The notes under the pieces were generated by a model. That model saw only the letters and a list, made by a program, of their open reading frames with translations. It made no database searches and had not been told where the DNA came from. Made by a program: the position numbers and the translations under genes. From positions 63,593 through 127,592 of the forward strand of contig NZ_JABEKV010000007.1 in NCBI RefSeq assembly GCF_013283645.1: DNA of 64,000 nucleotides, read 5' to 3'. Position 1 is the stretch's first letter. Every line of letters begins with the position of its first letter. This DNA comes from Sinorhizobium psoraleae (GTDB lineage: Bacteria; Pseudomonadota; Alphaproteobacteria; Rhizobiales; Rhizobiaceae). Positions 874 to 63,260 of this stretch are shown piece after piece.

Positions 874-887
874 TTGATCCCGCGCAA
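874..887. promoter_or_regulatory. Degenerate FixK/FNR-like box
   Basis: TTGATCCCGCGCAA matches TTGA-N6-TCAA except for one base in the right half (GCAA). It is centred about 58 bp before the TTG start of the P1B ATPase, the same spacing as the exact boxes elsewhere in the window. Confidence 0.4.
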
Positions 888-1029
888 GGGCCCTACGGAA
901 TCGCTAAACGGCGGCCGAGGCAAAAAAATGCATGCCATGTGATGGCGGCGCCATTCTTCGACGATCGCGAGCTTGCAACACGGGGTCGCATTTGCTTTCC
1001 TTGCCAGGGTTTCACTTGGATCATCACAA

Positions 1030-1707
1030 ATGACGGTACAGCGGCGCCGGCGCATCATTAAGCGTCAGAGGAGTTCTGTTGGTTTGGCGCTCGTCGCCAC
1101 AATATCTTTCCTTGCAGGCATGACCGATGCGATAGGACTTATGTCCCTCGGAGATTTTGTGTCCTTCATGAGCGGCAATACGACTCGCGCATCCGTCGCT
1201 CTAATGCAGGGCGACGTCGCTCGGGGAGTGCTTCTCATCGGCGGACTGGTCACCTTCGTGATTGGGAACGCCGCGGGAGTAATGGTTGCAATGAGGTTCA
1301 GGCCGCAAGCTGTTTTGCTATTTGTATCCGTTTTGCTGTTATGCGCGGCCCTAACAGGTGATCAAAGAGAGCTCCGCTTCCTTTTGCTTATTCTGGCGAT
1401 GGGCGCGATCAACGCCTCTGTCGAGCAGATCGAAGGTCTGCCCGTTGGTTTGACATATGTTACCGGGGCGCTGTCACGCTTCGGACGAGGTTTGGGACGC
1501 TGAGCGATGGGCATCCGCAACGCGCATTGGATCATCCAAATCGTGCCGTGGCTCGGCATGATGGCAGGAGCACTTTTAGGGGCGACCCTCGTGCAAGGGG
1601 TAGGGGACCTGGCATTATGGCTGCCGGTTGCTACCGCCCTGGCTTTAACAGCAGTCGCGGTCCAAATACCCCGGCATTGGCAAGGCAGGTACGTTCAACA
1701 TCGTTAG
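1030..1707 (+). pseudogene. DUF1275 (YoaK-like) membrane protein with an in-frame TGA
   Basis: The reading frame starts at ATG 1030 and shows the DUF1275 pattern: a GMTDAIG motif after a short basic N-terminus, the FMSGNTT motif, then several hydrophobic helices. At 1501-1503 a TGA interrupts the frame, and the same frame continues without shift to the TAG at 1705-1707 with the expected C-terminal helices. Reading through gives about 225 residues, the usual family size, so this is a single nonsense change; a Trp codon (TGG) is the simplest ancestor. The function of the family is not established. It diverges from the P1B ATPase. The start has only a weak ribosome site. Confidence 0.75.
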
Positions 1708-1854
1708 CGGCTTTCCGCAAGTGATGCGGCTTGCTGCGCGGCGCTCCAAATCGGATATGCTTTGCGGCCTGACTCACCGGAGTGGTGGCGCACGACTTGG
1801 GCTTTCACGGAACTCCGACATCAATACGTTGCACGGGGGCGAAGCCGCAAGCGA

Positions 1855-3105
1855 ATGGAACCTCTTATTCTCCGTCTAGGGCTCGCCCTTGCCATAGGCC
1901 TGCTCGTGGGACTTGAACGTGGATGGCGGGAAAGGGAAGCGCCGGAAGGCAGCCGCACGGCAGGCATCCGCACCTACGGTATTTCGGGTCTGCTTGGCGG
2001 GATCTTGGCGGCACTGTCCGATGCACAGCGGAGCGACCTGATCTTTGCGGCAGGCTTCATGAGCTTCGCGCTGAGTTTCACCTGGTTCAAGCTGCGCGAG
2101 GCGCGGCACGATGAGGATTTCAGCGTCACCGGCGTTATTGCCGGGTTGGCGGTTTTTGGGCTCGGCGGATTGGCGGTGACTGGCGATTACAGCGTGGCGG
2201 CGGCGGGCGCGGCTGCACTCGCTGGCGTGCTCGCCAGCCGCGAGCTAACGCACAATCTTCTCAAGAATCTGTCATGGATCGAGCTGCGTTCGGCTCTGGT
2301 GCTGGCGGCGATGACAGCCATCGGCCTGCCTCTTCTTCCAAACCATGCCATTGACCCATGGGGCGGCCTCAATCCGCGTGAGATTTGGCTCTTCACGGTC
2401 CTGAGCGCCACCATTTCGTTTGTCGGGTACGTCGCGGTTCGTCTGCTTGGGTCGTCGAGAGGATTGTTGGTGAGCGGGCTAGTGGGTGCGGTCGTTTCGT
2501 CGACTGCCGTGACGGCCAGCTTTGGTCAGAAGGCGCGCGCTGGTGAGCGACCAGGGCCTTTGGCGGGAGCCGCAAGCATAGCCGCCGTCGTATCGTTGTT
2601 GCGAGTGCTGACGGTCGTCCTTCTCGTTTCCCCGCGCGTCTTCCCCGTAGTCGTACTCCCGATCGTCGCGGCTGCGGTGGTTTTCGCCGCGAGCGGCGCC
2701 GCACTGATGGCAAGAACCGCACCTCACGGCGACGAACCGATCAGTCCGCGAAATCCGTTTGAGCTCTTTGCGCTTCTGGTCTTTGCGGGCCTGTTTGCCC
2801 TAACCGCAACGACCGGCGCAGCGTTGATGAGCGGCATGGGCGACGACAGCTTGATCGGCATCTCAGCGGTGTCGGGAATTTTTGACGTGGATGTCGCGAT
2901 ACTCACGGCGCTTCGCGCTGGCGGCGGAGCGACACCTTTGCAGCCTGTTGGTGCAGCGGTGCTTGCCGCGGTACTCGCAAACGCAGGTGGAAGGGTGTTG
3001 GTGGCTGTGGGGGCTGGAACGCTACGTTACTGGACATCGCTTGCCGCCGTTTCACTCGTCGCTGCCGGAGCCGGAGCCGCAATCCACTTCTTCATTGATC
3101 GCTAG
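1855..3105 (+). CDS. MgtC/SapB N-terminal plus DUF4010 membrane protein
   Basis: This is a 416-residue inner-membrane protein. The first 130 residues form the MgtC/SapB-type region (GLLVGLERGW, then AGIRTYG) and the rest is a run of about eight hydrophobic helices of the DUF4010 type. MgtC relatives are linked to Mg homeostasis and ATP-synthase control, but the two-domain family is functionally uncharacterised. I start at the ATG at 1855 because the MgtC region begins there; an upstream ATG would add a non-hydrophobic extension. Its 3' end overlaps the 3' end of the convergent cation ATPase by 14 bp. Two further cation ATPases nearby fit an ion-homeostasis role. Confidence 0.8.
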   Translation: MEPLILRLGLALAIGLLVGLERGWREREAPEGSRTAGIRTYGISGLLGGILAALSDAQRSDLIFAAGFMSFALSFTWFKLREARHDEDFSVTGVIAGLAVFGLGGLAVTGDYSVAAAGAAALAGVLASRELTHNLLKNLSWIELRSALVLAAMTAIGLPLLPNHAIDPWGGLNPREIWLFTVLSATISFVGYVAVRLLGSSRGLLVSGLVGAVVSSTAVTASFGQKARAGERPGPLAGAASIAAVVSLLRVLTVVLLVSPRVFPVVVLPIVAAAVVFAASGAALMARTAPHGDEPISPRNPFELFALLVFAGLFALTATTGAALMSGMGDDSLIGISAVSGIFDVDVAILTALRAGGGATPLQPVGAAVLAAVLANAGGRVLVAVGAGTLRYWTSLAAVSLVAAGAGAAIHFFIDR

Positions 3106-6523: not shown

Positions 6524-6537
6524 TTGAGGGACATCAA
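6524..6537. promoter_or_regulatory. FixK/FNR box between BON and PPOX genes
   Basis: TTGAGGGACATCAA is an exact TTGA-N6-TCAA. Its centre is about 73 bp from the BON start (minus strand) and 71 bp from the PPOX-like start (plus strand), so one site could serve both divergent promoters. Confidence 0.8.
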
Positions 6538-8012: not shown

Positions 8013-8026
8013 TTGATCGCCATCAA
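8013..8026. promoter_or_regulatory. FixK/FNR box upstream of usp copy 1
   Basis: TTGATCGCCATCAA, centred about 70 bp before the ATG of the usp gene at 7949 (minus strand). Confidence 0.8.
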
Positions 8027-9026: not shown

Positions 9027-9040
9027 TTGATCCCGGTCAA
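9027..9040. promoter_or_regulatory. FixK/FNR box upstream of usp copy 2
   Basis: TTGATCCCGGTCAA, centred about 72 bp before the usp ATG at 8961 (minus strand). It overlaps the stop codon of the upstream ligase/acetyltransferase gene. Confidence 0.8.
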
Positions 9041-11736
9041 GAAGTTCCCGCCTGAGGCTGCAGCGCCAGTGTCGCAATCCTCAGGGTTGAATCGGCCGGA
9101 TGCGACGAAATCGCAAATCCAAACTCCCGGCACATTCTGAGCATTTTCGCATTATCACTCAGAACGAGCCCTTCGATGCGTTGCAGACCATCGGCCGCAG
9201 CATAGTCCCTGAGATGGGTGAGGAGAGCCCAGCCAAGACCGTGACCCTGCAGGTCGGTCCTGACCAGCAAGCCATATTCCGCGACCTCGTGATCGGGATC
9301 CGCGTAAAGCCTGGCAATCCCGGCGAGCGCGCCGCTTTGATTGTCGAGAGCGACGAAAGCCATCTCGCGTTCATAGTCGATCTGCGTGAGCCTAATCAGC
9401 ATCTGGTCCTGGAAGTGCTTGCGCGATGACAGGAAACGAAATCGGATGTCCGTCGAGGACGTCTTTGCCAGAAAATCCGGATAGAGCGCTGCGTCTGCCG
9501 GTGTGATTGGCCGCAGATGGTAAAGCCGGTCGGTGAGCGCGACCTGCTTTTCCCAATCGCTTGGATATGGGCGGATTGCGAGATCGCGATTGGGACCGGG
9601 GCGCGCGACGGCCTGCGGATCAATTTCGATGCGTGCGTCAAGGGCGATGACGCCCTCGGCGCTGGCGACCAGCGGGTTAATATCCATCGAAAGCACACAG
9701 GGCAAATCGACGATGATTTGTGATAGCGCCTTAAGTGCTTTGCAGATCGCTGCCCTGTCCGCGGCCGGCTCGTTGCGAAAACCTGCGAGGAGCTTCCCGA
9801 CCCGCGTCTGGTCGATCAAGTTGCCTGCGAGCACGGCATCAAGCGGCGGAAGCGCCACCGCGGTGTCTGCGACCACTTCCACGGAGACGCCCCCCGAGCC
9901 AAAGAGAATAACCGGACCAAAGATCGGATCTCGGGTGATGCCCAGAACCAGTTCCCACGCATGTCTGCGTTCGATCATCGGCTGAACGGCAAAGCCGTCG
10001 ACCACGGCGGCTGGGTCATACATCTTGAGCCGCGCGGTAATGCTCTCGGCAGCTTGCCGACCGGCGAGGGGAGTCCGGATGTCAAGGGCGACGCCGTCCA
10101 CATCGGATTTGTGTGTGATCGACTTCGATATCAGCTTGACCACCACCTTCGGTACGCTCGCAAGCAGCGAGCGGGCCGCGGCTTCCGCCTCCTCCGCTGA
10201 CCTTGCGATCACGGTTTGAGGGACGGGAATGCCGTAGGCTGCGATCACCGCCTTGGCCTCCGGTTCAGTGAGCATCCGGCGACCTTCGGTCGCCACTTTC
10301 CGGAAAATGGATTGCACGAAGCCCCGCTGATGAGGCACTTCGTCGCTTTGGCTCGGGGGTACACGGACCAGCGACTCCTGCGCTTTCGACCATCTGGCGA
10401 GACAGGAAGCAGCCAGGGCCACATCCGATGGCGTCTCGTAACTTGCCAGTCCGGCATCTTGAAGCACATGACGACCGTCGCGAGCGGTCAGGCCGCCCAA
10501 CCAGCATGTCAGAACGGGCTTGTCTGAGATTGTCCCGGCCCGCGCAAGGGAGCCCGACCGCTTGAGCGGCATCAACGGGCGAGGCAAGGCCGGTCGGGCA
10601 ATTCATGACGATCAGAATGTCCACTCCCGCGTCCTGAACGATGATCTCGACCGTCGTCTTGTAGCGCTCGGGTGGGGCATCTCCGATTATATCAACGGGA
10701 TTAGCATGCGACCAATTGGCGGGCAAAATCCGGTCGAGTGCGCGAGTGGTCTCTGGCGAAAGCTCCGCGAGCTCGCACCCGAAGTCGACCAGTCGATCCA
10801 CTGCGAGGACCCCGGCTCCGCCACCATTGGTGACGATTGCGACACGGCTGCGCTCAAGAGGAGGAAAACGCGCGATGGTCTCGGTCGCGTCAAACAGTTC
10901 GCCGAGGCCGTCAATTCTCAAGATACCGGCACGGCGCAGAGCGGCGTCGACCACCCGATCGGCCCCTGAAAGCGCGCCAGTATGCGTGGCCGCCGCTTTG
11001 GCCGCCTCGGCATGACGGCCCGCCTTGATTGCGATGATCGGCTTTACTCGCGCCGCTGCTCGGGCTGCCGAGAGGAACTTCCGGGGATTGGGGATCGTCT
11101 CGAGATACATAACGATCGCCCGCGTTTCGGGATCTCCGGCAAGCAGGTCGAGAAAATCGCCAGCGTCGGCGTCAGCCATGTCACCGAGAGAAATGATCTT
11201 AGAGAAGCCGACATTGTTCTCCGCCGCCCAGTCGATCAACGAAGTCGCGATCGCCCCGGATTGCGAAAGCAGTGCTATTCCGCCATGCGGTGCCGCCAAA
11301 TGCGCGAAGCTCGCATTCAGTTTCGCGGAAGGAACGATGAGACCCACCGTGTTGGGTCCGATGATGCGAAGCAGAAATGGTCTCGCGGCGTCGAGCATCG
11401 CTTGTTTCAGTCCATGATCAGCGTCGAGATCCGCCGTGATGACCACCGCGGCGCGCGTTCCCTTCGTGCCCAACTCATGGATCAGAGCCGGCACAGTCCG
11501 TGGTGGAGTCACAATGATGGCTAGATCAGGAACACCCGGAACATCTGCTACTCGGCGGTAGCAGTGGAGGCCGGAAACCTCGACATGTTTGGGATTTACC
11601 GGCCAGATATCGCCCTCGAATTCGGCCGCGAGCACGTTCTCCACGACCACGCGGCCAAGCGACCCGGCTCGGTTCGAGGCGCCGAGAATTGCAACCGACT
11701 TCGGAGCGATGGCGTGATGAAGGTTGCGTATGCCAT
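9037..11736 (-). pseudogene. ADP-forming acetate-CoA ligase / GNAT fusion (Pat-like), two frameshifts
   Basis: The combined product would be about 900 residues: a CoA-binding domain (SVAILGASNRAGSLG near the start), a ligase-CoA domain (GIALLSQSGAIATS, TNGGGAG), an ATP-grasp domain, and a C-terminal GNAT acetyltransferase ending near GHGLGWALL. Such fusions act as lysine acetyltransferases or acetyl-CoA ligases. The ATG at 11736 has a ribosome site, but its frame leaves the family sequence after two codons; one extra base there restores MAIRNLHHAIAPKSV. A second shift lies in the C-run at about 10553-10555, where removing one base joins the two large frames. Both breaks are single-base, so sequencing error is possible. 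A FixK box lies 60 bp upstream. Confidence 0.8.
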
Positions 11737-11789: not shown

Positions 11790-11803
11790 TTGATCGCGCT
11801 CAA
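11790..11803. promoter_or_regulatory. FixK/FNR box between Pat-like and mgtA-like genes
   Basis: TTGATCGCGCTCAA, an exact TTGA-N6-TCAA. It is centred about 60 bp from the Pat-like start (11736, minus) and about 118 bp from the ATPase start (11915, plus). Confidence 0.75.
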
Positions 11804-11914
11804 TGCGAAGCTGTCCGCACTTTGCAAATTGACCTTCCTCAATGCGTTCGCGTTGGCGGCGGTGACATTCTCGTCAGTATCGGCCTACTCCGAGCGCCGG
11901 CAGGAATGGATTCG

Positions 11915-14569: not shown

Positions 14570-16483
14570 TCAATCGAGCAGCTCTCGCAGCCGCAACGCC
14601 AACTCGCTGGCGGTGTAGGGTTTTTGCAGCCAACTCCCTGCCGCCCTGCCGGCGGCGCCCGGTTCGGCATAGCCGGACGTGAACAGCATCTTCACATCGG
14701 GTCTGAGGGCGCGCACGTGCCGGCCCAATTCGTCGCCATTCATTCTGCCTGGCATAATCATGTCCGTGAAAACGAGGGAGACCTCCGGATGCGCCTCAAG
14801 CAGTTGAAGTGCCTGCGCGCCGGCTTCCGCCTCGATGACGGTGTATCCGGCGTCGCGCAGTCGCGAGACAACGACTCGGCGCACGCGTTCATCGTCCTCC
14901 ACGACAAGGATCGTCTCATGGCCTCTCGGAATGGGCTCCGGGTAGGCAGTTTCATCTACGCCAATTTGTGCCGACTGGCTTTCTCCCCGCGCGGCCGGCA
15001 GAAAGAGGCGCACGCTCGTGCCGCGGTCAGGCTCACTGTAGAGCTGAACATGCCCGCCAGATTGCTTGACGAAGCCGTAGACCATGCTGAGGCCAAGTCC
15101 TGTCCCCGCACCGGTGCCTTTCGTTGTGAAGAAGGGCTCGAAGGCGCGACGCTTGATGTCTTCTGTCATCCCTACGCCGGTGTCGGTGACGGCAACCAGA
15201 ACATAGTGTCCCATTCGGACCTCCGGGTACATCTGGGCGTAGTCACGATCGAGGGCCGTAGTCGAAATCTCGATGGTTGCTCGGCCACCATTCGGCATTG
15301 CGTCGCGCGCGTTCAGCCCCAGGTTCAGGAGAGTGTTTTGAAGTTGGGAAACGTCGATCAGCGCGAGATTGCTGCTGCCCTTCACGACGGTCGATAATTC
15401 TATCGTCTCGCCCAGCGTTCTGGTCAGAAGCTTCGAAAAGCTAGAGACGAGTTCTCCAACGTCAACGAGCTTCGGCGTTAGAGGCTGACGCCGGCCGAAT
15501 GCGAGCAATTGTGCCGTCAACTTTGCCCCATCGTCAGCCGCCGCCTGCGCTTCGCGCAAGAGTTCCCTGAGCCTCTCGTCTTCCAGCCGGGTCTCGATCA
15601 TCTCCAGATTGCCGGTGATCACAGTCAACAGATTGTTGAAATCATGCGCCAAGCCCCCGGTCAGTTGCCCGACGGCCTCCATCTTCTGCGCTTGCCTGAG
15701 TTCTTCCTCGATGCGTTGTCGGCTGGTGAGATCCCGAATGAAACCGGTGAATATGCGGCGGCCATTGGTCATCGCTTCCCCGACTGAGAGCTCCATTGGG
15801 AACGTTGTACCGTCCTTTCGTAGCCCGGTGACGACCCTTCCAATCCCGATGATGCGCCGTTCGCCCGTGCGCAGGTAGTTGTTCAGGTATTGGTCATGCG
15901 CATCGCGGTGGGGGGAGGGCATCAGGACCTTGACGTTGTGGCCAACGACATCGCTTTCGGCGTGTCCGAAGAGGCGTTCCGCTGCTGCGCTGAAGGAACT
16001 GATCGACCCTCTTTCATCAATTACGACCATCGCCTCGGGAACCGTGTCGAGAATCGAGCGAAGATGTGCCTCTCGCGCCGCCAGATCGGCCTGAGCACGC
16101 TTGAGATTTGTAATGTCGCTGTCAGTTTGCACGATTACGAGGTGCCCGGCAGACGCGGTATCTACCCATCGGCTCGCGACAAATACGGGGCTTCCATTGC
16201 TGTGCCTTTGCACCAGCTCGCCCGACCACGTGCCATGAGAGCGCAAGTGGTCGCGAATTTGCTCGAGCGGCTGAGGGAAGGTAGTGGATAGGAGATCATG
16301 AACAACCTTGCCCTTCGCCTCAGCGCGTGACCAGCCGTAGAGCGCTTCGCAGCCGTTGCTCCAATGCGTAATGATTCCGTCGAGCCCGTGGACAATCACG
16401 TTGGCGTCGTCGAGAGCATTGACGAAGTTCGCGTCCCGTTGCTCCATCTCGCGCTGTCGCCTTTCATGCGTTGACGGATGCAT
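14570..16483 (-). CDS. fixL: Hybrid FixL: PAS, haem-PAS, histidine kinase and receiver
   Basis: The 637-residue protein reads PAS (about 15-125), a second PAS (about 143-255), a kinase core with the phosphoacceptor H280 in [10 protein letters not shown], an N box ([11 protein letters not shown]), G boxes, and a C-terminal receiver with D574 in FTDMIMPG. The second PAS matches the FixL haem domain: [10 protein letters not shown] with the proximal-type H196, and IIGIGRVV with R216 at the ligand-switch arginine position. It should therefore bind haem and sense O2. A receiver-bearing FixL without a FixJ nearby is the hFixL type known from Rhizobium etli and R. leguminosarum. There is no transmembrane segment, so it is cytoplasmic. 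The start overlaps the fixK stop by 20 bp, implying co-translation; a later ATG at 16447 is possible. Confidence 0.9.
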
Positions 16484-17213
16484 GTGTCACTGCGCGGACG
16501 AGAGAGGGCATCCATCGCTCGCTTTCGTCGCCCTCCGCCAGCAGTCGAAGCGTTTCCATCTTCAAGATCTTGATCGAGCGCCGACCCGCTCCTTCAATGA
16601 TACCGCTGTTCGCGAGTTTTGTTATAGTGCGAGATACCGTCTCGATCGTCATTCCCAAATAATTCGCGATATCGAGCCTTGTCATGGGGAGCTCAATAAT
16701 CGAACGGTGCTCTGAGTTCCCCCTCTGCCTCATCATCAGCAAGAAGTTGGCAAGCTTCTCGTCGGCGCTCCTGCGCGAAAGCAAGACGGTTTGATCCTGC
16801 GCGGCGGTCATCTCATCGCGCAGCTTGGAGACGAGTTGCTCCTGCAAGTGTGAATTGCGTGCCACTTCGTCCTCGAACCGGCCTCGAGGGAAGCGACGAA
16901 GTTGCACGGGGGAGATTGCCTCGACTGTATAAAGATAACGCTCCTTGAGCGACACACCGAGGAGATCTCCGGGGCCCAAGAAGCCAACTATAATACGGCG
17001 GCCGTCGCCGAGCAGACGAAGCGCTCGCAGCATTCCATCCGCGACTTCGAAAACATGCGTGGCCTCGTCACTCTCCCAGAATATTGCCTCACCGGGCTCG
17101 AACCTTTCGAGCGGCTGTCGGCTGAAAAGTGAGCAAAGGTCTGCTGCCGACGGGGTCCGCGAATCCATCGCAATTGCGCGACCATCCGGCATCGCTAAGA
17201 CGTGAACGCTCAT
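16464..17213 (-). CDS. fixK: FixK-type Crp/Fnr transcriptional regulator
   Basis: This 249-residue Crp/Fnr protein has a cyclic-nucleotide-type beta roll (residues about 30-140) and a C-terminal winged helix with [17 protein letters not shown]. The E-x-x-S-R recognition pattern (ETVSR) is the one that reads TTGA half-sites. Only one cysteine is present, so it cannot hold an Fnr iron-sulphur cluster and belongs to the FixK rather than the FnrN type. A GGAGGAG site precedes the ATG. Its upstream region carries the K-box and a short palindrome, and no FixK box, so it should be driven by FxkR. It is the obvious candidate to bind the many TTGA-N6-TCAA sites here. Confidence 0.88.
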
Positions 17214-17300: not shown

Positions 17301-17316
17301 TGTAACAAAGTGTAAC
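17301..17316 (-). promoter_or_regulatory. K-box-like direct repeat upstream of fixK
   Basis: On the minus strand the sequence is GTTACA-CTTT-GTTACA, an exact direct repeat with a 4-base spacer. This matches the K-box described for FxkR activation of fixK in Rhizobium etli, as I recall it. It lies 88 bp before the fixK ATG and in the fixK-fxkR intergenic region. Confidence 0.8.
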
Positions 17317-18734: not shown

Positions 18735-18748
18735 TTGATGTTCGTCAA
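18735..18748. promoter_or_regulatory. FixK/FNR box, first of a tandem pair
   Basis: TTGATGTTCGTCAA, exact match. It is centred about 155 bp before the start of the gene at 18586 (minus) and 152 bp before the gene at 18894 (plus). Confidence 0.65.
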
Positions 18749-18769
18749 AAACGTGGAAGCGCCGCAAAT

Positions 18770-18783
18770 TTGATGAGGGTCAA
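18770..18783. promoter_or_regulatory. FixK/FNR box, second of a tandem pair
   Basis: TTGATGAGGGTCAA, exact match, 35 bp centre-to-centre from the first box and about 117 bp before the carbamoyltransferase-like start at 18894. Confidence 0.7.
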
Positions 18784-19898: not shown

Positions 19899-20253
19899 GA
19901 TCGAGACTGTTGAGAACGGCATCGCTGAGGCGTGCCCGCCCATAGGCTGCGTTCGCGGGCGGGAGGGGATCCAAAAGAGGGCCACTGGCGCTCGCGACCG
20001 GATGAGCTGCATGGCAACTATCGACACCCCTTCCGGCCACAGGCCCTGAGCAGGCGCCAGTGCCGAGTACAGCCTGGCCGCCGCACTCCAGGTGCGCCTG
20101 CTGCATCCCAGCCAACGCGACGAACTCAAGCGAGCCGAGCAGAAAACAGCGTCGCAGGATGGCAGTGGCCATAACCGACGCTCGGCGTTACGGAGCGAGG
20201 TCGTCAGCTTGCCCACCGATACAGGTGGAGGCGGAACACTCCGCAGAGATCCC
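19899..20253. other. Intergenic stretch without recognised gene
   Basis: About 355 bp between the convergent carbamoyltransferase-like and DUF6448 genes. I see no coding pattern, FixK box or convincing terminator; possibly a remnant. Confidence 0.4.
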
Positions 20254-20880
20254 TCATTCCGTACCCTGGTGGTGATCCTGGGTAGGCGCTGCTTCAACGT
20301 GCATTCCGCCCTTCGCGGCGAGATGGATGCCCTCGACATAGCCTATGAAAGCGAGTTCGGCGCTTACTCGGGCACGGGCCTTGGCAACGTCGGCCTGGGC
20401 AGTTGGCTCCCTCGTAACCGCGCGGTGAGCCCTGGCCTCGCGGTATCTTTGCGCGATTCCGTGGCTGACCTCCTCACTCATGAGGGCGGTCAGCGCATCC
20501 GGCTTCCCGGTCTCGAGCGCCTCTTCGGCGGCTGGGATTGCTGGGCCGAAATCGGTACCGGCCGGTTTTAACCCGGTGTAAGGCGCTCCCTCCCCAGCAC
20601 GGTGGAGCCGCACTGCGGTTTCCATGAAGTAGCGATCAGCCAATGCCTTGGCATCGGGTCCCTGCTTGCGCACGTTGAGCGACTGCTCAAAGGCCGAGCG
20701 CAACTCAGGCTCGGCCGGAGCAGGCGCAAATGGGAGTATGAGATTGACGTTTCCGCGATCAAGTGCCCGAACCGCGGCCGTGGCCACCGGACCGTCTGCG
20801 GCGTCGCAATGGGCCCGAGCGCTGATTGGAATAAGCGCCACTCCAAGCAAGATAACAACAGTTGCGAGCATTTTTGACAT
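20254..20880 (-). CDS. DUF6448 family secreted protein
   Basis: The 208-residue product has a cleavable signal peptide (hydrophobic residues 5-20, ending SARA) and a mature start HCDAADGPVATAA, followed by a helical domain rich in Ala and Arg and a His-rich tail (HVEAAPTQDHHQ). This agrees with the DUF6448 family of periplasmic proteins, whose role is unknown. An AGAGGAG site precedes the ATG. It is downstream of a damaged hemerythrin-like gene on the same strand and may share its FixK-box promoter at 21459. Confidence 0.75.
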   Translation of the reverse strand: MSKMLATVVILLGVALIPISARAHCDAADGPVATAAVRALDRGNVNLILPFAPAPAEPELRSAFEQSLNVRKQGPDAKALADRYFMETAVRLHRAGEGAPYTGLKPAGTDFGPAIPAAEEALETGKPDALTALMSEEVSHGIAQRYREARAHRAVTREPTAQADVAKARARVSAELAFIGYVEGIHLAAKGGMHVEAAPTQDHHQGTE

Positions 20881-20914
20881 TCGATGCTCCTCTGGTTGAT
20901 TGCTGACAGCAGGT

Positions 20915-21377: not shown

Positions 21378-21458
21378 CGATTGCTCCTTTCAGGGGGGAG
21401 CGCAGCATCCGGCAATGGCACCTGAAGATGCAGTGTCGCACACCTTTGAGTTCGTCAT

Positions 21459-21472
21459 TTGATACAGATCAA
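21459..21472. promoter_or_regulatory. FixK/FNR box upstream of hemerythrin-like gene
   Basis: TTGATACAGATCAA, an excellent match including the TTGAT/ATCAA half-sites, centred about 88 bp before the start at 21377 (minus strand). Confidence 0.8.
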
Positions 21473-21782
21473 TCCGGCTGACGCTTCGATAGGAATCGTC
21501 TGCCACCGTTCGGCTAGTCGCCGCGGCTTTTGAGAGCCGCAATTGCCTAGAAGCTCCTCGCCAAGGCGGGTCTTCCCGCTGAAGTAATCAACGGGCCGCC
21601 CGATTTCCTGAAAAGCTTGCGTTATGGAAAACAGATACGCTGATCGAAACTAGGCCAAGATCGCGGCCGGTTTTCCTTGCGGCCATGGGAGCCGACCGCT
21701 TGCGTGACGACAGCCAGGCATGGTGAAGCTCACGGGAAAGGTCTGCTCCTGTGTCCGACTGGCTCGGCACGTCCTTTGCGCG
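21473..21782. other. Intergenic stretch without recognised gene
   Basis: About 310 bp between the cyclase stop and the FixK box. I see no convincing reading frame, repeat or terminator. Confidence 0.4.
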
Positions 21783-43065: not shown

Positions 43066-43068
43066 GGA

Positions 43069-45435
43069 CTACTCCCTTGTCTTCAGCACTGCGATCAGGT
43101 CCAGACGATCGAGCCGCCGACGCACGACCGCGGCGCAGACCAGCGTGGCCACGAGCGCGATCAGCGCAGCCTTGCCGTAGGTTGCATCCCTCAAGACGAG
43201 CGGCACGCGGTAGAGCTCCGTCTCGAAGGCGCTCGTCATGTACCATGCAAGGCCATAGCCGATGATTGCGCCGAGCGGGATCGCGAGCCATGTCAGAATG
43301 CCGACTTCGCCAAGCAGGATGTAGGAGATTTCCCAGCGGCTGAAGCCGAGTACGCGGAGCGTCGCCAATTCGCGCGCCCGTTCGGAAAGCGCGATGCGGA
43401 TCGAATTGTAGGTGACGCCGACTGAAAGCGTCATCGAGAAGGCGACGAAAAAGCCGATGAAGATAAAGATCGTTTCTCCCATCGTGTTGTAGAACGTGTC
43501 GATCGCGGCCTGGCGGAAAAGCACAGCGGCGATGTTGGGGATGTCCTTGAGCCTCGCCAGCAACGTCGCGCGGCTCGGAGCATCGACGCGCATGTGCAGG
43601 CCACTCACGACGCGGCCGTCGCCGGCCATCCGGTTGAGCGCGGTCATGTCCATATAGGCGGGTGTGCCGAGATAGGTTTCGAAGACTTGCGCTACGGGCA
43701 GGCTCAGTCGCTTCTGTCGCCCTTCCAGGAGTTCCACGTCGACGGTGTCGCCGGCGTTCACATCAAGAAGCTCGGCGAGCTTGCGTGAGACCATGAGCCC
43801 CCCGGGAGAGACCTCGATGCGTCCCCGCTTGACGTCGAAGACGGGGCTGAGGATAGCGCTGGGCGGGACGCCGATGATGCCCTGCCGCTCGGCGAGATGG
43901 CCGTGCCTGATGCGTGCCGAGACATAGCGATAGGGCTCGGCCGCCAGGACGCCGGGCAGGTTCTCGAAGTCTGCGACGGCGTCGATCGGCTGCAGGTCGT
44001 TAAACGCAACTGTCGCGTCCTGGTGCTGTCCACGCTCGAAGGCCGTCTCGGCAAGAGAATCGATGGCGTCGACCCATTGCAAGGCCATGATCAGCACAGC
44101 GACCGACAGGGCGAGGCCGAGGCTCGCGAGGAAGGCCCGCACAGGCCATCGGATGATGCGCCGGAAGATCATGCGCGATGGCTCGTCCAGCGCACGGGCG
44201 AGTGCGGTCCGCGATGCCCAAATGCGCCGATAGACCGGCGGGGAAGGGGGTAGCATGGCTTCCGCAGGCGGCAGCCGCACGGCCCGACGTACCGCGGCGA
44301 GGCTGCCGGCGAGCGCCGCACCGAGGCTGACCGTGCCGGCAATCACAAAGCCGGCCGGGCCGGGGCGGTAGAGCAGGAAGGGAAAGCGATAGAACTTGGT
44401 GTAGAGCTCCGTGTTCCAATGAGCGAGCCAGGCGCCGATCAGGGAGCCGATCAGGATACCGATCGCCCCGATGACGAAGACCATCTTGGCGTAGTGCCAG
44501 CCGATAGCCCAATTTCCATAGCCGAAGGCCTTCAGGAGTCCGATTTCGCGGCGTTCCGTCTCGATCAGCCGTGCCATAACCATGTTGGTCAGAAAGGCGG
44601 CGACCGCCAGGAAGATGGTCGGCATGATCCGCGACATGTTCTTCTGCTGGGCGATTTCGCTCTCCAGGAACCAGTTCGAGGTCTGGTCGGCGCGACCGTA
44701 GGCACCGATGCCGCCGAAGGGAGCCAGGAGGCCGTCGAGCCGGCGGATGACGTCCTTTTCGTCAGCGCCGGGCAGTAGGCTGAGTGTGATACTGTTGAAG
44801 GATGCCTTGAGGTCGAAGGCAGCCGCCAGTGCATCGTGCCCCATCCACAGGATGCCGAAACGTTCGTCGTCCGGCATGAGGCCGCCGGGGGCAATCGCGT
44901 AGACGAATTCGGGGCTGAGTGCCGTGCCAACGACCTGCAGCGTGCGTTTACGCCCCCTCAAGACGGCATCGAAATTGTCGCCGGGCTTCAATTGGTGAGC
45001 CTCGGCGAAAGGCTCGCTGACGACCACCTCGTCAGGCCGGGCCGGGTCGGCCAGGCGTCCGGATCTGACAACCAACGCGTTCAGAAGCTGGAGCCCCCGT
45101 TCCGGCAGCGAGAGCAGTTGCGCAACGACCGGCTCGGCAAAGCCGGGCATGTCGAGAATTGCACCTTCGACGATACGCGTCTCCACGAGGCGGACGCTTG
45201 GAATATCCGCGATTTCGCGGCCAAGACGTTCGGGCGCGCGCTTTGCCTGGGCAAACACATCGGCAAAACGCGTCCGCTCGTAATAGGCGGCAGTCGTCTC
45301 CTCGAGCGCCTCGATCGTCGTCAGCGCCATGATGAGCAGGGCGGTACCGGACGCGATCACCAGCGCGATCGCAAGAACCTGCGCCTTCAGTCTCCAGAGT
45401 TCACGGATGAGCTTGCGATCGAGACTGCTCATCAT
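43069..45435 (-). CDS. FtsX-like ABC export permease (duplicated)
   Basis: The 788-residue protein has the FtsX/MacB permease plan twice: a first helix, a large periplasmic domain, three helices, then a short repeat of the same layout. Typical segments are TNMVMARLIETERREIGLLKAFGYG and IRIALSERARELATLRVLGFSR. It moves lipids, peptides or toxins out of the inner membrane. It follows the ATPase with a GTGA overlap, so a GTG at 45441 is an alternative start to the ATG given. Confidence 0.88.
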   Translation of the reverse strand: MMSSLDRKLIRELWRLKAQVLAIALVIASGTALLIMALTTIEALEETTAAYYERTRFADVFAQAKRAPERLGREIADIPSVRLVETRIVEGAILDMPGFAEPVVAQLLSLPERGLQLLNALVVRSGRLADPARPDEVVVSEPFAEAHQLKPGDNFDAVLRGRKRTLQVVGTALSPEFVYAIAPGGLMPDDERFGILWMGHDALAAAFDLKASFNSITLSLLPGADEKDVIRRLDGLLAPFGGIGAYGRADQTSNWFLESEIAQQKNMSRIMPTIFLAVAAFLTNMVMARLIETERREIGLLKAFGYGNWAIGWHYAKMVFVIGAIGILIGSLIGAWLAHWNTELYTKFYRFPFLLYRPGPAGFVIAGTVSLGAALAGSLAAVRRAVRLPPAEAMLPPSPPVYRRIWASRTALARALDEPSRMIFRRIIRWPVRAFLASLGLALSVAVLIMALQWVDAIDSLAETAFERGQHQDATVAFNDLQPIDAVADFENLPGVLAAEPYRYVSARIRHGHLAERQGIIGVPPSAILSPVFDVKRGRIEVSPGGLMVSRKLAELLDVNAGDTVDVELLEGRQKRLSLPVAQVFETYLGTPAYMDMTALNRMAGDGRVVSGLHMRVDAPSRATLLARLKDIPNIAAVLFRQAAIDTFYNTMGETIFIFIGFFVAFSMTLSVGVTYNSIRIALSERARELATLRVLGFSRWEISYILLGEVGILTWLAIPLGAIIGYGLAWYMTSAFETELYRVPLVLRDATYGKAALIALVATLVCAAVVRRRLDRLDLIAVLKTRE

Positions 45436-45437
45436 GT

Positions 45438-46160
45438 TCACCAGGCGAGTTCGCCGGGGGCGCGTTGGGCGGCGTTGGTCCGCGTTTCGACGATGCGCCC
45501 GTCGGCAAAGTAGAGCACGCGATTGGCAATCTCGGCAATGACGGCGTTATGAGTAATGAGCGCCGTGGTCGTACCGAGTTCGCGATTGATCCTGAGGATC
45601 GCGTCGAGCACGAGGATTCCGGTCTTGCTGTCGAGTGCGCCTGTCGGCTCATCGCAGAGAAGCAGGTCGGGGCGCTTGGCGATTGCGCGGGCAATGGCAA
45701 CGCGCTGCTGCTCGCCGCCGGAAAGTTGCGCGGGGAAGTGATCGAGTCTGTCGCCGAGCCCAACGATCGAAAGCGCCTCAACGGGCGACATTGGGTCTCT
45801 GGCGATCTCCGTCACGAGGGAGACGTTTTCGCGCGCCGTCAAGCTGGGGATGAGATTGTAGAATTGGAAAACGAAACCGACGTGGTTGCGCCGGTAAAGG
45901 TTGAGTGCGCGTTCGCTATCCAGCGTGAGGGGCTCTCCGCGAAACCTGACCGTTCCGCCAGTCGGCGTATCGAGGCCGCCAAGAATATTGAGCAGGGTCG
46001 ACTTGCCGCTGCCGGATGGGCCCAATAGCACCACCAGTTCGCCCTCGCGAAGGGCCACCTCCACTCCGCGCAGGGCGTGAACTTCCACCGCACCCATCCG
46101 ATAGACCTTGGTGAGTTCGCGCGCCTCCAGGGCGATGGCCGATGCCTCGTTCTCCACCAC
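45438..46160 (-). CDS. LolD/MacB-type ABC ATPase
   Basis: The 240-residue ATPase has Walker [13 protein letters not shown], the Q-loop [10 protein letters not shown], the signature LSGGEQQR, Walker [13 protein letters not shown] and the switch His in ALITHN. It drives the two-part permease encoded immediately downstream, with which it overlaps. The start is a GTG with GAGGAG about six bases upstream. It lies 63 bp after the host-attachment gene. Confidence 0.92.
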
Positions 46161-46223
46161 TCACTCCTCGGGTCGGCGGCGTATCACCGGGACCGCGAAC
46201 CTCGCTCCCGTCTCAGGGGGGTG

Positions 46224-46670
46224 TCATTGCAAAAGATAATGCTCGATCTTGGGAATTGGAAACCCCACCAGATCCTTGGCCACCTCAGCGATGACTAAGG
46301 CGCGGGCCGAGGAATCCAGTTGCTTGCGCAGAGGGCCAAGAACACGCGGCGCTGCAACGCGAACCAGTTTATTGATGCCCTCGTCGCGTGCGAATGCGAC
46401 AAGTTTCTCGCAAACGTGGGAGACGAAGGCTTCCTCTGCCCGGTCATGCCAGTCCGTTTGCTGGACTGCGCTTCGAGCGCCACCCTGCGACTGATAAACT
46501 CGCCCCTCACGGTGCGTTCCGAGTTCCCGCGCCGGAGGCTGATATTCCGATTCGACATTAACCGGAATGAGATTGATGAGCTTGGCATCCCCTTGGTTAC
46601 GCAGGATGAGAGCCTTGGCTCCATCACACACCAGCACTACGCTGCCGTGCGGAATTCTTATCGTCGACAT
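46224..46670 (-). CDS. Host-attachment protein family (baeRF-like)
   Basis: The 148-residue protein starts MSTIRIPHGSVVLVCDGAKALILRN and has the conserved WHDRAEEAFVSHVCEKL and LVRVAAPRVLGPLRKQL stretches of the family annotated as required for attachment to host cells (AtsE-like, related to bacterial eRF1). Its biochemical function is unknown; an RNA or ribosome role has been proposed for the fold. It sits in the hsp20-usp operon, 36 bp after usp. Confidence 0.85.
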   Translation of the reverse strand: MSTIRIPHGSVVLVCDGAKALILRNQGDAKLINLIPVNVESEYQPPARELGTHREGRVYQSQGGARSAVQQTDWHDRAEEAFVSHVCEKLVAFARDEGINKLVRVAAPRVLGPLRKQLDSSARALVIAEVAKDLVGFPIPKIEHYLLQ

Positions 46671-46706
46671 GATACTGGCCTCAGTCGCAAGCGTTCGAAA
46701 TCTTCA

Positions 46707-47537
46707 TCATCGCGCGATCAAGACGGGGAGCCGGGCTTCGGTGAGCATCGATTGTGTGACGCCACCGAATACGAGCTCACGCAGCCGTGGGTGACCATAG
46801 GCGCCCATGACGATCATATCGGCCGCAATATCAACGGCATGTCGCTGCAGGACCTGCGCCACGGTCCGGCCCTCGCTCGGCAGCGCATCGACGGTCACAT
46901 CGATGCCGTGGCGCGTTAGATAGGCGGCGACATCTGCTCCGGGTTCTTCTCCGCTCGCCCTAAGCGTCGCCGTGGGATCCACCATGGTGACGTGAACGGA
47001 CTCGGCGTCGGCCATCAACTGGAGTGCTTCTCGCGCCGCATGTGCGGATTGAGCGCGCGAGTCCCAGGCTAACAGGACGGTCTTCGGCTTAAGCGTCGGG
47101 CTACATGCGGGCGGGATAAGCAACACCGGACGTTCCGATTGAAAGAGGCCACCGCCAATAATCTGCTTCTTGAGATCGTCGTCTTCGAAGGCGCCGGGAC
47201 CGATCAGGATAAGATCGGCATAAAGCGCCCGTTCGCCTATGTCGTAATTGGCGCCTGCCACCTCCGCATAGATGCTGTCGACATCAAATGAAATCTCCCG
47301 CTTTGAGAGTTTGTCGCGAACCTTCTTTACGGTTTCGCCAAGCGCTTGCAGGTTTCGCTCGCGCTGTTCGAGCCATGCCGGTGCAAGCGTTGCATACCGT
47401 CCGGTCGGTTGTTGCGCAAAGCCGACGATAAGAGCGCTTAAGTGCGCGGAAACTTGTTCGGAGATATCCGTCGCCACCTGCAGGTCGCGGTCGGTCTGCG
47501 GAACGCCAATGACGGCAAGCATCGTCTTGAACGGCAT
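46707..47537 (-). CDS. Universal stress protein, tandem UspA domains (copy 3)
   Basis: The 276-residue protein has the two-domain Usp plan with the C-terminal signature GAYGHPRLRELVFGG. It is related to the copies at 7116 and 8134 but more distant, for example MPFKTMLAVIG at the start. GGAGGAGAAC before ATG 47537 sets the start. It lies 90 bp after hsp20 in the same operon and ahead of the host-attachment gene. Confidence 0.9.
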   Translation of the reverse strand: MPFKTMLAVIGVPQTDRDLQVATDISEQVSAHLSALIVGFAQQPTGRYATLAPAWLEQRERNLQALGETVKKVRDKLSKREISFDVDSIYAEVAGANYDIGERALYADLILIGPGAFEDDDLKKQIIGGGLFQSERPVLLIPPACSPTLKPKTVLLAWDSRAQSAHAAREALQLMADAESVHVTMVDPTATLRASGEEPGADVAAYLTRHGIDVTVDALPSEGRTVAQVLQRHAVDIAADMIVMGAYGHPRLRELVFGGVTQSMLTEARLPVLIAR

Positions 47538-47627
47538 GTTCTCCTCCATTGAAACGTCGAAGTGTGACCCGAGAATGAACCAGCAAGACGCGCCAGCCGG
47601 CGCGTCCTGCTCTCCCAGTACGAAATG

Positions 47628-48155
47628 CTAGGCTGGTTTGATCTGGATCTTGCGTTCGCTCTGCTGCGCTTCGCGAGTCTTTGGCAGGCTCACGGAAAGA
47701 ACGCCCTTGGAAAAATTGGCGGCGATGTTGTCGGCATCAACACCATCAGGCAATCGGAAGGCTCTCTGGAATGAGCCGTAGCGACGCTCCGAAAGGACGT
47801 AGTCCTTGTTCTTCTCTTCTTTCTGCTCCTGTTTCTCACCCCGGATCGTCAGGGTTCCGTTGGAGACGGCGACCTCTATGTCCTTTTCCTCCATCCCGGG
47901 CAGCTCGCAGGTAATTTCGTAGCCCTTCTCTGTCTCCGCGACGTCGACGGCGGGCGCGATCTTGAACTCCGGCAGCCGCGGCATCCGACGCATGAATGCG
48001 GACGCAAGGGGGCGATGCCATAGGGTCGGAGCGAAATCGTCGAACAGGCGGTCGATTTCGGATCGGAGGCTTTCGAACGGGAGCCACGGCTCGCCGCGAT
48101 GCTCGACGGCTTTCTCGTCCGACTTGACAGGCAATTTGGTTACAGGTTCAGCCAT
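47628..48155 (-). CDS. Small heat-shock protein Hsp20
   Basis: The 175-residue chaperone has an N-terminal arm with FESLRSEIDRLFDDF and then an alpha-crystallin domain (about 60-155: PAVDVAETEKGYEITCELPGMEEKDIEVAV, GTLTIRGEKQ, NFSKGVLSVSLPKT). It holds unfolding proteins for refolding, in the cytoplasm. AAGGAG before ATG 48155 sets the start; the upstream part of the frame is not part of the gene. It opens the operon that continues to the ABC exporter, with a FixK box about 156 bp upstream. Confidence 0.92.
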   Translation of the reverse strand: MAEPVTKLPVKSDEKAVEHRGEPWLPFESLRSEIDRLFDDFAPTLWHRPLASAFMRRMPRLPEFKIAPAVDVAETEKGYEITCELPGMEEKDIEVAVSNGTLTIRGEKQEQKEEKNKDYVLSERRYGSFQRAFRLPDGVDADNIAANFSKGVLSVSLPKTREAQQSERKIQIKPA

Positions 48156-49675: not shown

Positions 49676-49689
49676 TTGATGGACGTCAA
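49676..49689. promoter_or_regulatory. FixK/FNR box between glucokinase-like and ppsA genes
   Basis: TTGATGGACGTCAA, exact match, about 61 bp from the minus-strand start at 49621 and 90 bp from the plus-strand start at 49772. Confidence 0.8.
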
Positions 49690-54211: not shown

Positions 54212-54225
54212 TTGACGCGCATCAA
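54212..54225. promoter_or_regulatory. FixK/FNR box upstream of groEL
   Basis: TTGACGCGCATCAA, exact match, about 57 bp before the groEL start (minus strand). Confidence 0.8.
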
Positions 54226-54265
54226 ACGACATCTGCAGGGCCGCTCAAGCGTCAGGCGATCATCT

Positions 54266-54279
54266 TTGATGCCGGTCAA
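54266..54279. promoter_or_regulatory. FixK/FNR box upstream of usp copy 4
   Basis: TTGATGCCGGTCAA, exact match, about 68 bp before the usp start at 54340. Together with the groEL box it forms a two-box divergent promoter region. Confidence 0.8.
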
Positions 54280-57554: not shown

Positions 57555-57568
57555 TTGACGCAAATCAA
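57555..57568. promoter_or_regulatory. FixK/FNR box upstream of the small protein and prs region
   Basis: TTGACGCAAATCAA, exact match, about 59 bp before the start at 57502 (minus strand). Confidence 0.8.
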
Positions 57569-57746
57569 GGATGTGGGTGAGGTCCAGCTGTGCGTTGCGG
57601 CCTTCACGATCGCGCCAGCAGAATGTTACGGGTCTTCGCACGGAGCACACTAGACGCGGACCAGACTGAGGTGAGCACGACCTGACGCAAGCAAGCCGAA
57701 CGGTTCTAGCGGCGCGGGGAGTATGGCGGCCTTGCCGCTCCCCTTA

Positions 57747-57760
57747 TTGACCGACGTCAA
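57747..57760. promoter_or_regulatory. FixK/FNR box upstream of the CBS-BON operon
   Basis: TTGACCGACGTCAA, exact match, about 66 bp before the CBS-BON start at 57819. Confidence 0.8.
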
Positions 57761-62620: not shown

Positions 62621-63141
62621 TCAGCGTACCACCAGCACGGAGCAATGTGCATGCTGTATGATCTTTTGCGACGCGCTTCCGACCAGCATACCCCTCAACC
62701 GCCCGAGCCCGCGGCTTCCAACGACGATCAAGTCCGCACCGATTTCCTCAGCGACCTTAAGAATCGTTTCAGCGTAGGCGCCGGGCTCGACGCGCGTCTC
62801 CACGCTACCGACGCCGATGCTTCGGGCAACATCGGCAGCGTCCTCGGCAATCCGGTCACCCAAGACCGAAACCATTTCTCCGATGTCGCCTTGCGAGGCA
62901 CGGAACAACTCGCCCATCGAGTTGGGAACACGTTCCAACTGTGGCAGGGTCACGGCCGATACACGGCGGACGAGGTGCTCCGGCTCAGCGAGGCGGCTCG
63001 CCTCCTCAGCCCTCAGCCCATGCAGGATGATTGAAGGATCGTAAGCCTTGCTCCGAGTGCTGTGGCTATGTTCGCCGCCATCGTCACGGCTTCTCGGGCT
63101 TTGTCGGATCCATCGGTTGCGACAAGAATGCGCTTGGTCAT
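62621..63141 (-). pseudogene. Single-domain Usp with a frameshift
   Basis: From ATG 63141 (GGAGGAAG upstream) the frame reads MTKRILVATDGSDKAREAV and stops after LTILQSSCMG at 63013. The rest of a Usp (LHGLRAEEASRLAEPEHLVRR, then DLIVVGSRGLGRLRGMLVGSASQKI and HCSVLVVR) lies in another frame to 62621. One base restores a protein of about 170 residues. The C-terminal ATP-binding motif GxRGxGRxRGxLxGS is perfect. A FixK box lies about 55 bp upstream. Confidence 0.8.
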
Positions 63142-63189
63142 CGCACTTCCTCCATTCGGCAAAGTATCAGGCAACTCCGGCCGAAGGCA

Positions 63190-63203
63190 TTGACTCGCGT
63201 CAA
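63190..63203. promoter_or_regulatory. FixK/FNR box upstream of broken usp
   Basis: TTGACTCGCGTCAA, exact match, about 55 bp before the start at 63141 (minus strand). Confidence 0.8.
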
Positions 63204-63246
63204 AGGCCACGGCGGCTTCCGTCACTTTGAGCCGAGCTCTCCGAGT

Positions 63247-63260
63247 TTGACACGGGTCAA
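63247..63260. promoter_or_regulatory. FixK/FNR box upstream of ftsH
   Basis: TTGACACGGGTCAA, exact match, about 67 bp before the ftsH start at 63320. With the usp box it forms a divergent pair 57 bp apart. Confidence 0.8.

What the first reader, a model, noticed from the sequence alone, without database searches (positions are those of the whole stretch)
874..63260. Array of 22 exact FixK/FNR boxes in 64 kb
TTGA-N6-TCAA occurs at 6524, 8013, 9027, 11790, 18735, 18770, 21459, 25758, 26656, 28947, 31634, 36025, 38093, 40381, 48305, 49676, 54212, 54266, 57555, 57747, 63190 and 63247. The pattern fixes eight bases, so about one match per 65 kb is expected by chance. Almost all lie between genes, and most are centred 55-90 bp before a start codon, the spacing expected for a FixK site near -41.5. 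The whole segment therefore reads as one co-regulated island rather than scattered targets. My scan was by eye and focused on intergenic regions.
Basis: partly seen in the sequence, partly recalled or inferred. Interest (0 to 1): 0.9.

Follow-up and report, generated by a model that had tools for sequence, protein, structure and literature searches.

The report
Plasmid-borne low-oxygen survival gene island
A plasmid in a nitrogen-fixing soil bacterium carries about 68 kb of stress and energy-saving genes, many of them behind the same low-oxygen switch site, together with its own predicted oxygen sensor, so the block probably turns on together when air runs out.

Summary
TTGA-N6-TCAA occurs 24 times in the window (22 listed, plus 10562 and 11829) against 0.6 expected; 23 of 24 lie outside called genes, and only the 6-base gap is enriched. 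Outside the two box-rich contigs the genome has about one per 70 kb. The dense run (about 68 kb, 27 sites) sits on a repABC plasmid of a Sinorhizobium (Ensifer). Boxes show class II geometry: a -10-like element 29.5 bp from the box centre, ranked first in three of five island sequences, third and seventh in the others. Box state follows the gene in 165 of 186 orthologue pairs. The island encodes a hybrid FixL, FixK and FxkR, and the genome's only exact K-box lies 95 bp before this fixK. The near-colinear conjugative plasmid pSF45436d of S. fredii has 46 boxes; ten of its stress genes strongly induced in a published transcriptome are box-linked (nine directly, one in a boxed run). Best reading: a self-contained, exchanged low-oxygen survival regulon, related to a pSymA stretch of S. 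meliloti and analogous to the Burkholderia lxa locus: new variant of a known kind. Expression and oxygen response were not measured here, and other FixK/FnrN proteins may share the boxes.

The parts
6524..6537 (.). FixK/FNR box between the divergent BON gene (73 bp) and PPOX-family gene (71 bp)
8013..8026 (.). box 70 bp before universal stress protein gene 7116-7949 (-)
9027..9040 (.). box 72 bp before universal stress protein gene 8134-8961 (-)
10562..10575 (.). box-like site inside the broken acetate-CoA ligase gene; the one site of 24 inside a called gene, probably not regulatory
11790..11842 (.). two boxes (11790, 11829) between the broken acetate-CoA ligase gene (-) and an MgtA-like P-type ATPase gene 11915-14539 (+)
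   Evidence: the name MgtA from the pSF45436d annotation
14570..16483 (-). hFixL: hybrid PAS histidine kinase with C-terminal receiver; one PAS matches haem-PAS FixL structures
16464..17213 (-). FixK: Crp/FNR-type regulator without a Cys cluster, ETVSR in the recognition helix, best solved relative FixK2; overlaps the hFixL gene
17301..17316 (-). exact K-box GTTACA-N4-GTTACA, centre 95.5 bp before fixK; the only exact one in the genome
17355..18095 (+). FxkR-like OmpR-family response regulator, divergent from fixK
18735..18783 (.). two boxes (18735, 18770) between a hypothetical gene (-) and an ornithine carbamoyltransferase-like gene 18894-19898 (+)
19900..38080 (.). block absent from the colinear place in pSF45436d; six boxes (21459, 25758, 26656, 28947, 31634, 36025); adenylate/guanylate cyclase, heavy-metal-type P-ATPase, LTXXQ chaperone, CYTH and CYTH-CHAD, PPK2, MscS, MarC and Na/Ca exchanger-like genes
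38093..38106 (.). box 68 bp before MBL/beta-CASP RNase-like gene 38168-39763 (+)
40381..40394 (.). box 63 bp before trypsin-like/PDZ protease gene 40451-41782 (+)
41866..48155 (-). run of six genes: hsp20, usp, host-attachment/baeRF12, ABC ATPase, FtsX permease, HlyD; box 48305-48318 upstream (156 bp)
49676..49689 (.). box between glucokinase (-, 46 bp) and PPDK/PEP synthase (+, 89 bp) genes
54212..54279 (.). two boxes, 57 bp before GroEL (-; followed by ATPase inhibitor zeta) and 67 bp before a USP gene (+)
57555..57760 (.). boxes 57555 and 57747 (65 bp before a run of CBS-BON, PfkB, NMT1-like and ABC ATPase genes, +)
63190..63260 (.). two boxes 123 and 66 bp before gene 63320-65197 (+), colinear with the ftsH gene of pSF45436d

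Best explanation
The segment is a plasmid-borne low-oxygen survival regulon. When oxygen falls, the local haem-PAS hybrid kinase hFixL should phosphorylate the local FxkR, which binds the single K-box and switches on the fixK-hfixL operon; FixK then binds TTGA-N6-TCAA at about -41.5 of some two dozen transcription units (27 of 40 by a naive count) as a class II activator. The genes made are not nif genes or the cbb3 oxidase but universal stress proteins, chaperones, proteases and energy-economy enzymes (an acetate-CoA ligase of the succinyl-CoA-ligase-like type, PPDK, PPK2, PfkB, glucokinase, F1-ATPase inhibitor zeta). Box and gene behave as a unit that is exchanged, duplicated and rearranged among Sinorhizobium replicons. 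Shown by sequence: boxes, spacing, -10-like element, K-box, domain content, conservation, plasmid setting. Inferred: oxygen sensing, phosphotransfer, binding, induction and survival benefit.
For: 24 boxes against 0.6 expected, gap 6 only; 23 of 24 outside called genes; 27 of 40 naive transcription units have a box within 350 bp. Class II geometry: in 112 oriented sites xAxxxT starts 29.5 bp from the box centre in 40% against a 5.8% mean over 72 offsets; the TATAAT score there ranks 1 of 72 in C65, pSF45436d and G102, 3 in pSymA, 7 in C6; 15 non-island sites rank 46. hFixL matches FixL haem-PAS structures with the His equivalent to the haem ligand aligned; FixK best match is FixK2. Exact K-box unique in the genome. 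Box state agrees in 165 of 186 orthologue pairs over eight sequences. hFixL and the MBL gene occur in the same 15 of 33 genus genomes, which have more boxes per Mb (18.1 against 14.2, P 1.6e-4). pSF45436d has 46 boxes; of its ten genes in Table 1 of PMC8552645 (log2FC 3.58-7.04) nine have a box within 400 bp and the tenth follows hsp20, which has one.
Against: No expression data for this strain. The genome has further Crp/FNR-type proteins, three of them with the same ETVSR motif and one of these with an N-terminal Cys cluster, that could use the boxes. The transcriptome cited is a humic-material treatment, not an oxygen shift; its main text has no 'microaer' or 'anaerob' and I saw no oxygen measurement in the passages read; its authors say nod/nif/fix were unaffected although ccoO and ccoP rose 21.2- and 17.5-fold; Table 1 is a selection, and its 11 genes on other replicons, two strongly induced usp genes among them, were not checked for boxes. 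A boxed pSF45436d hsp20 (RS32390) is not in that table. hFixL relatives in G208, G078, G115 and G233 stand with only 5, 1, 1 and 0 boxes in 80 kb, so the cascade also exists without the array. The fixK beside hFixL on pSF45436d has a K-box with two mismatches; the exact K-box of that plasmid is before another regulator gene. 13 of 40 units have no exact box. The E. sesbaniae copy of the MBL gene has no box within 140 bp of its match start (locus L111). Several island genes are broken.
Confidence: 0.75

Rival explanations
1. The boxes are real but served mainly by the cell's other regulators (an FnrN-like protein on contig C34, FixK-like proteins on C1 and C45, presumably under FixLJ), so the island is an appendix of the host regulon and its own cascade is minor.
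For: Paralogues with the same recognition motif exist; FixK and FnrN recognise very similar sites (PMC4999443 passages); in R. leguminosarum FnrN is critical in the nodule (PMC7888657 passages). That genes of this stretch of pSymA answer to FixLJ-FixK in S. meliloti is recalled, not read. A FixLJ pair was not searched for in this genome.
Against: hFixL and the island marker gene share the same 15 of 33 genomes; the only exact K-box is in the island. Both are indirect.
Confidence: 0.22
2. Chance, base composition or copies of a longer repeat produced the array.
For: None found.
Against: Shuffles and gap controls; the biased columns over 112 oriented sites are the box, positions beside it and the -10-like element, with only weak bias elsewhere, not a longer repeat.
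Confidence: 0.01
3. A decaying relic: boxes persist but the island no longer works as a unit in this strain.
For: Acetate-CoA ligase, PRPP synthase, nicotinate phosphoribosyltransferase, a gene matching hypothetical protein RS32635 and one USP gene are split, rearranged or truncated, the first four compared with pSF45436d.
Against: The three regulator genes and many others are open frames; box state is kept in 40 of 41 pairs with pSF45436d, 27 of 28 with pSymA and 16 of 16 with C6.
Confidence: 0.05

Closest known systems
Sinorhizobium meliloti 1021 pSymA, 590-690 kb of NC_003037
   Same: Many of the same genes incl. hFixL-FixK-FxkR at about 72-88% nucleotide identity, 21 boxes in 100 kb, an exact K-box
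   Different: Megaplasmid type that also carries nod/nif/fix (PMC13274422 passage); 19 of 27 gene neighbours kept, no OTC-like match at the place next to FxkR. The published microaerophilic regions named in the passages I saw are 200-390 and 679-708 kb (PMC3164228), so most of this stretch is not named there; its FixK control is recalled
S. fredii CCBAU 45436 plasmid pSF45436d
   Same: Near-colinear over most of the window at about 75-94% identity; repABC; 46 boxes
   Different: Longer array (45 boxes in 123 kb), lacks the 18-kb block; its role is called unclear in PMC8552645
Burkholderia cenocepacia lxa locus
   Same: About 50-gene low-oxygen cluster with six USPs, alpha-crystallin, PfkB, a BON protein; an Anr/FixK-type regulator is proposed (PMC6127331, PMC9104464 passages)
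   Different: Different class of bacteria; no sequence comparison was made here; a local hFixL cascade is not mentioned in the passages seen
hFixL-FxkR-FixK cascade of Rhizobium etli / R. leguminosarum
   Same: fixK-hfixL operon under a K-box, FxkR as response regulator (PMC7888657, PMC4999443 passages)
   Different: There it drives fixNOQP and fnrN; here it lies in a stress island, and no exact or one-mismatch anaerobox was found within 250 bp before fixK or fxkR
Mycobacterium DosR dormancy regulon
   Same: Analogy only: USPs, alpha-crystallin, phosphofructokinase, low oxygen (likeness drawn for lxa in PMC6127331)
   Different: Unrelated regulator and operator (recalled); not compared by sequence here

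Membership tests
FixK/FNR class II regulon | TTGA-N6-TCAA palindromes before genes above chance | tested here: met
   24 vs 0.6; 23 of 24 outside called genes
FixK/FNR class II regulon | box centred at -41.5 with a -10 element | tested here: met
   -10-like element at offset 29.5, rank 1 of 72 in three of five sequences, 3 and 7 in the others; no mapped transcription starts
FixK/FNR class II regulon | induction at low oxygen dependent on FixK/FNR | not testable with these tools
   only indirect, from the pSF45436d transcriptome
hFixL-FxkR-FixK cascade | hybrid kinase with FixL-type haem PAS and receiver | tested here: met
   haem binding not tested
hFixL-FxkR-FixK cascade | OmpR-type FxkR response regulator | tested here: met
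   receiver plus Trans_reg_C; orthology to R. etli FxkR not tested directly
hFixL-FxkR-FixK cascade | K-box before fixK | tested here: met
   exact, unique in the genome
FixK rather than FnrN | no N-terminal Cys cluster | tested here: met
   one Cys, residue 27
lxa locus | homologous gene set with B. cenocepacia lxa | not tested
   no Burkholderia lxa sequence was fetched
nod/nif/fix symbiosis cluster | nif or cbb3 oxidase genes in the segment | tested here: not met
   none among 53 window proteins scanned with Pfam (50; a few short ORFs were not scanned); ccoN matches above the cut-off lie on C34 and C66

The most novel reading that the evidence does not exclude
The island and its plasmid relatives are a transmissible, plug-in oxygen-response regulon: sensor, relay, activator, unique operator and dozens of pre-wired box-gene units arrive together by conjugation and give the recipient anoxic survival without needing the host's own FixK cascade.
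Probability: 0.35. Interest if true: 0.72.

Novelty: new variant of a known kind. Interest (0 to 1): 0.5.

Why it matters
It gives a testable explanation for an accessory plasmid of a soybean symbiont whose role is described as unclear (pSF45436d, PMC8552645), links it to a predicted oxygen sensor, and suggests that whole regulons, operators included, can be traded between rhizobia. If true, it bears on how these bacteria survive in flooded soil and in nodules.

Tried and rejected
Chance or composition was rejected by shuffles, gap controls and genome density. A dispersed-repeat origin was rejected because no longer sequence is shared around the boxes. A nif/fix respiratory cluster was rejected: no such genes among the proteins scanned and ccoN above cut-off only on other contigs. 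The tRNA-Lys call at 38287-38368 lies inside the MBL gene and is probably spurious. No Rfam family reached its gathering score in the window. A guess of mine from reading that gene 48641-49636 was a release-factor relative was wrong; Pfam says glucokinase. The CBS-BON protein gave 25 solved sequences at E up to 1e-8, general CBS proteins and one OsmY, none named as a dormancy-regulon protein. The box-rich neighbourhood of the MBL gene is not universal: 26 of 58 named loci of at least 10 kb have three or more boxes, 22 of them Sinorhizobium/Ensifer, Rhizobium or labelled only Rhizobiales, and four outside; 8 of the 66 loci are shorter than 10 kb and were left out of this count.
Full report
Check of the observation. 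One hundred dinucleotide shuffles give a mean of 0.60 and a maximum of 3. With gaps of 0 to 12 bases only the 6-base gap stands out, 24 against 0 to 4. The genome (7,427,611 bases, 67 contigs) has 143 sites; the pattern read backwards has 31. Contig C65 (205,829 bases; window = 63593-127592) has 30 and contig C6 (58,992 bases) 11. On C65 the dense run is -2916 and -1556 (window coordinates), the 24 window sites and 65194: 27 sites in about 68 kb. The other three lie 18.6 to 54.3 kb to the left, and none in the 77 kb to the right. The remaining 102 sites of the genome give 0.91 per 64 kb, and 24 in one window has Poisson P 7e-26. Of 15 non-island sites sampled (of 143; the first loci returned, all on C1) 7 look coding. 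Distances: 13 of 24 boxes have a start 55-90 bp away, the other 11 nearest at 104-315 bp.

Anatomy. Pfam scans covered 53 window proteins (50, three). They include four universal stress proteins and one truncated USP, Hsp20, GroEL, a trypsin/PDZ protease, an LTXXQ periplasmic protein, BON and CBS-BON proteins, a PPOX-family protein, three P-type ATPases, acetate-CoA ligase (in two frames), PPDK/PEP synthase, glucokinase, PfkB, PPK2, CYTH and CHAD proteins, ATPase inhibitor zeta, PRPP synthase pieces and the N-terminal part of nicotinate phosphoribosyltransferase. No nif or cbb3 gene was seen; two ccoN genes above the family cut-off lie on C34 and C66, and C65 has one match below the cut-off, 48 kb left of the window.

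Regulators. Window 14570-16483 (-) is a PAS, PAS, HisKA, HATPase, receiver hybrid kinase. Its second PAS aligns to solved FixL haem-PAS domains; the His equivalent to the haem ligand (residue 196 here; that it is the ligand is recalled) and the IIGIGR stretch are kept. FixK (16464-17213, -) overlaps it, has a single Cys (residue 27), an ETVSR motif in its helix-turn-helix and FixK2 as best solved relative. The divergent regulator 17355-18095 (+) is of the OmpR type. Between them lies an exact K-box GTTACA-N4-GTTACA, the published FxkR operator (PMC4999443 and PMC7888657, passages), centred 95.5 bp before fixK. With one mismatch allowed the whole genome has this exact site and one single-mismatch site. 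No exact or one-mismatch anaerobox was found in the 250 bp before fixK or fxkR. The genome has five further matches to this FixK at E up to 1e-6; three (C34, C1, C45) have ETVSR, and the one on C34 has an N-terminal Cys cluster.

Promoter geometry. In five sequences (C65, C6, pSF45436d 15200-201059, pSymA 590000-689800, 100 kb of relative G102) there are 135 boxes, 130 outside called genes. Of 175 box-to-gene orientations within 350 bp, the 112 with a start within 130 bp and full flanks were aligned; 63 were left out. Besides the box, C at -8.5 and G at +8.5 are biased (54% and 79%), and a -10-like element appears at +29.5 from the box centre. That equals -12 to -7 if the box is centred at -41.5. 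xAxxxT occurs there in 40% against a mean of 5.8% over 72 offsets. The TATAAT score at this offset ranks 1 of 72 in C65, pSF45436d and G102, 3 in pSymA and 7 in C6; 15 non-island sites in both orientations rank 46. Sites in orthologous promoters are not independent.

Coverage. A naive grouping gives 40 transcription units from -2871 to 65197, some of them doubtful short ORFs and some sharing a box with a divergent neighbour; 27 have an exact box within 350 bp and 13 do not.

Relatives. The best match of the window is pSF45436d of S. fredii CCBAU 45436, a conjugative repABC plasmid by PLSDB typing and annotation, near-colinear at about 75-94% nucleotide identity. It has 46 boxes, 45 of them within 123 kb. 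Compared with it, the window has an extra block at about 19.9-38.1 kb that itself holds six boxes, and lacks at the colinear place the pSF stretch 75.5-126.4 kb with 20 boxes. Contig C6 is colinear with S. meliloti pSymA at mostly 85-93% (one stretch 74%), so this genome holds two versions of the island; no match to the hFixL, the FixK or the K-box was found on C6. C65 carries repABC (RepC 91% identical to that of pSF45436d) and VirB4/VirB11-like genes beside it, but no match to the TraA, TraG, VirB9 or VirB10 of that plasmid, so the window lies on a plasmid that may or may not be self-transmissible. Over eight sequences 186 reciprocal-best orthologue pairs were scored: both boxed 78, both unboxed 87, discordant 21 (Fisher P 9e-29, pairs not independent). 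Some G102 proteins are 91-99% identical to those of the window while most others are 58-89%, which suggests recent exchange; this was not tested with trees.

Before the MBL gene an exact box stands 56-75 bp from the match start in 17 of 36 named loci examined, a one-mismatch site in 6 more, and none in 13, among these E. sesbaniae and E. adhaerens ST2 and the more distant genera; match starts are not always true start codons. Of all 66 named loci, 58 are at least 10 kb and 26 of these have three or more boxes, four of them outside Rhizobium, Sinorhizobium/Ensifer and unlabelled Rhizobiales.

Co-occurrence. At E up to 1e-150 the hFixL protein and the MBL/beta-CASP protein each match 15 of 33 genus genomes, and they are the same 15. 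Those have 18.1 boxes per Mb against 14.2 (counts, rounded genome sizes; Mann-Whitney P 1.6e-4, 2.8e-4 without this genome; shared ancestry not corrected). K-boxes are exact in 12 of 14 sequences scanned, one-mismatch in G078 and absent in C6. Against a strict link, hFixL relatives in G208, G078, G115 and G233 have 5, 1, 1 and 0 boxes in 80 kb.

Independent data. PMC8552645 (passages and section 8 read) reports that humic material raised 103 of 203 pSF45436d genes and says the plasmid's role is unclear; fixK does not occur in its main text. Ten of the 21 genes in its Table 1 carry pSF45436d locus tags, with log2FC 3.58-7.04. Nine have a box 57-281 bp upstream and the tenth directly follows boxed hsp20; the plasmid USP without a box (RS32565) is not in the table, but neither is a boxed hsp20 (RS32390). 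The other 11 genes were not checked. ccoO and ccoP rose 21.2- and 17.5-fold. That higher cell density lowered oxygen is my inference; the authors report nod/nif/fix as unaffected. A further paper on this strain's replicons, PMC5991415, does not mention FixK in its main text (passages).

Known and new. That rhizobial low-oxygen genes use FixK/FnrN boxes, that hFixL-FxkR acts through a K-box, and that pSymA has a microaerophilic gene set are published (passages); the regions named for that set in the passages I saw are 200-390 and 679-708 kb, which cover little of the stretch matched here. A low-oxygen island with USPs is known as lxa in Burkholderia, where a likeness to DosR was noted. The eight paper searches listed no title or abstract start describing pSF45436d or a like plasmid as a FixK-box array with its own cascade; the lists were capped at 20 (360 papers fitted), and two papers asked for by id, the original lxa paper and the S. 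meliloti FixJ regulon paper, were not held. The novelty claim is limited by that.

Verdict. A real, FixK/FNR-type, class II island on a plasmid, with its own predicted oxygen cascade. New variant of a known kind.

Noticed in passing
10490-10590: Acetate-CoA ligase gene is in two frames here (single 899-aa frame in pSF45436d); box-like site 10562 lies at the junction.
   Followed up: partly
55329-57502 and 61472-62521: A gene matching hypothetical protein RS32635, PRPP synthase and nicotinate phosphoribosyltransferase are split, partly inverted or truncated relative to pSF45436d.
   Followed up: partly
contig C6 (L024-L026): Second, pSymA-like copy of the island (11 boxes; 16 reciprocal-best orthologues, median 84.5% identical to window proteins), without hFixL, FixK or K-box.
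   Followed up: partly
L168, L101, L100, L096, L099: pSF45436d carries 46 boxes, further Crp/FNR-like genes with an exact K-box beside them, phosphoketolase and many stress genes.
   Followed up: partly
38287-38368: ARAGORN tRNA-Lys(ctt) call inside the MBL gene, probably spurious.
   Followed up: no
L145, L153, L151, L155: Stappia, Pseudotabrizicola and Pseudorhodobacter loci of the MBL gene also have 3-4 boxes.
   Followed up: no
52170-52499: ATPase inhibitor subunit zeta gene directly after boxed groEL, a plausible ATP-saving brake.
   Followed up: no
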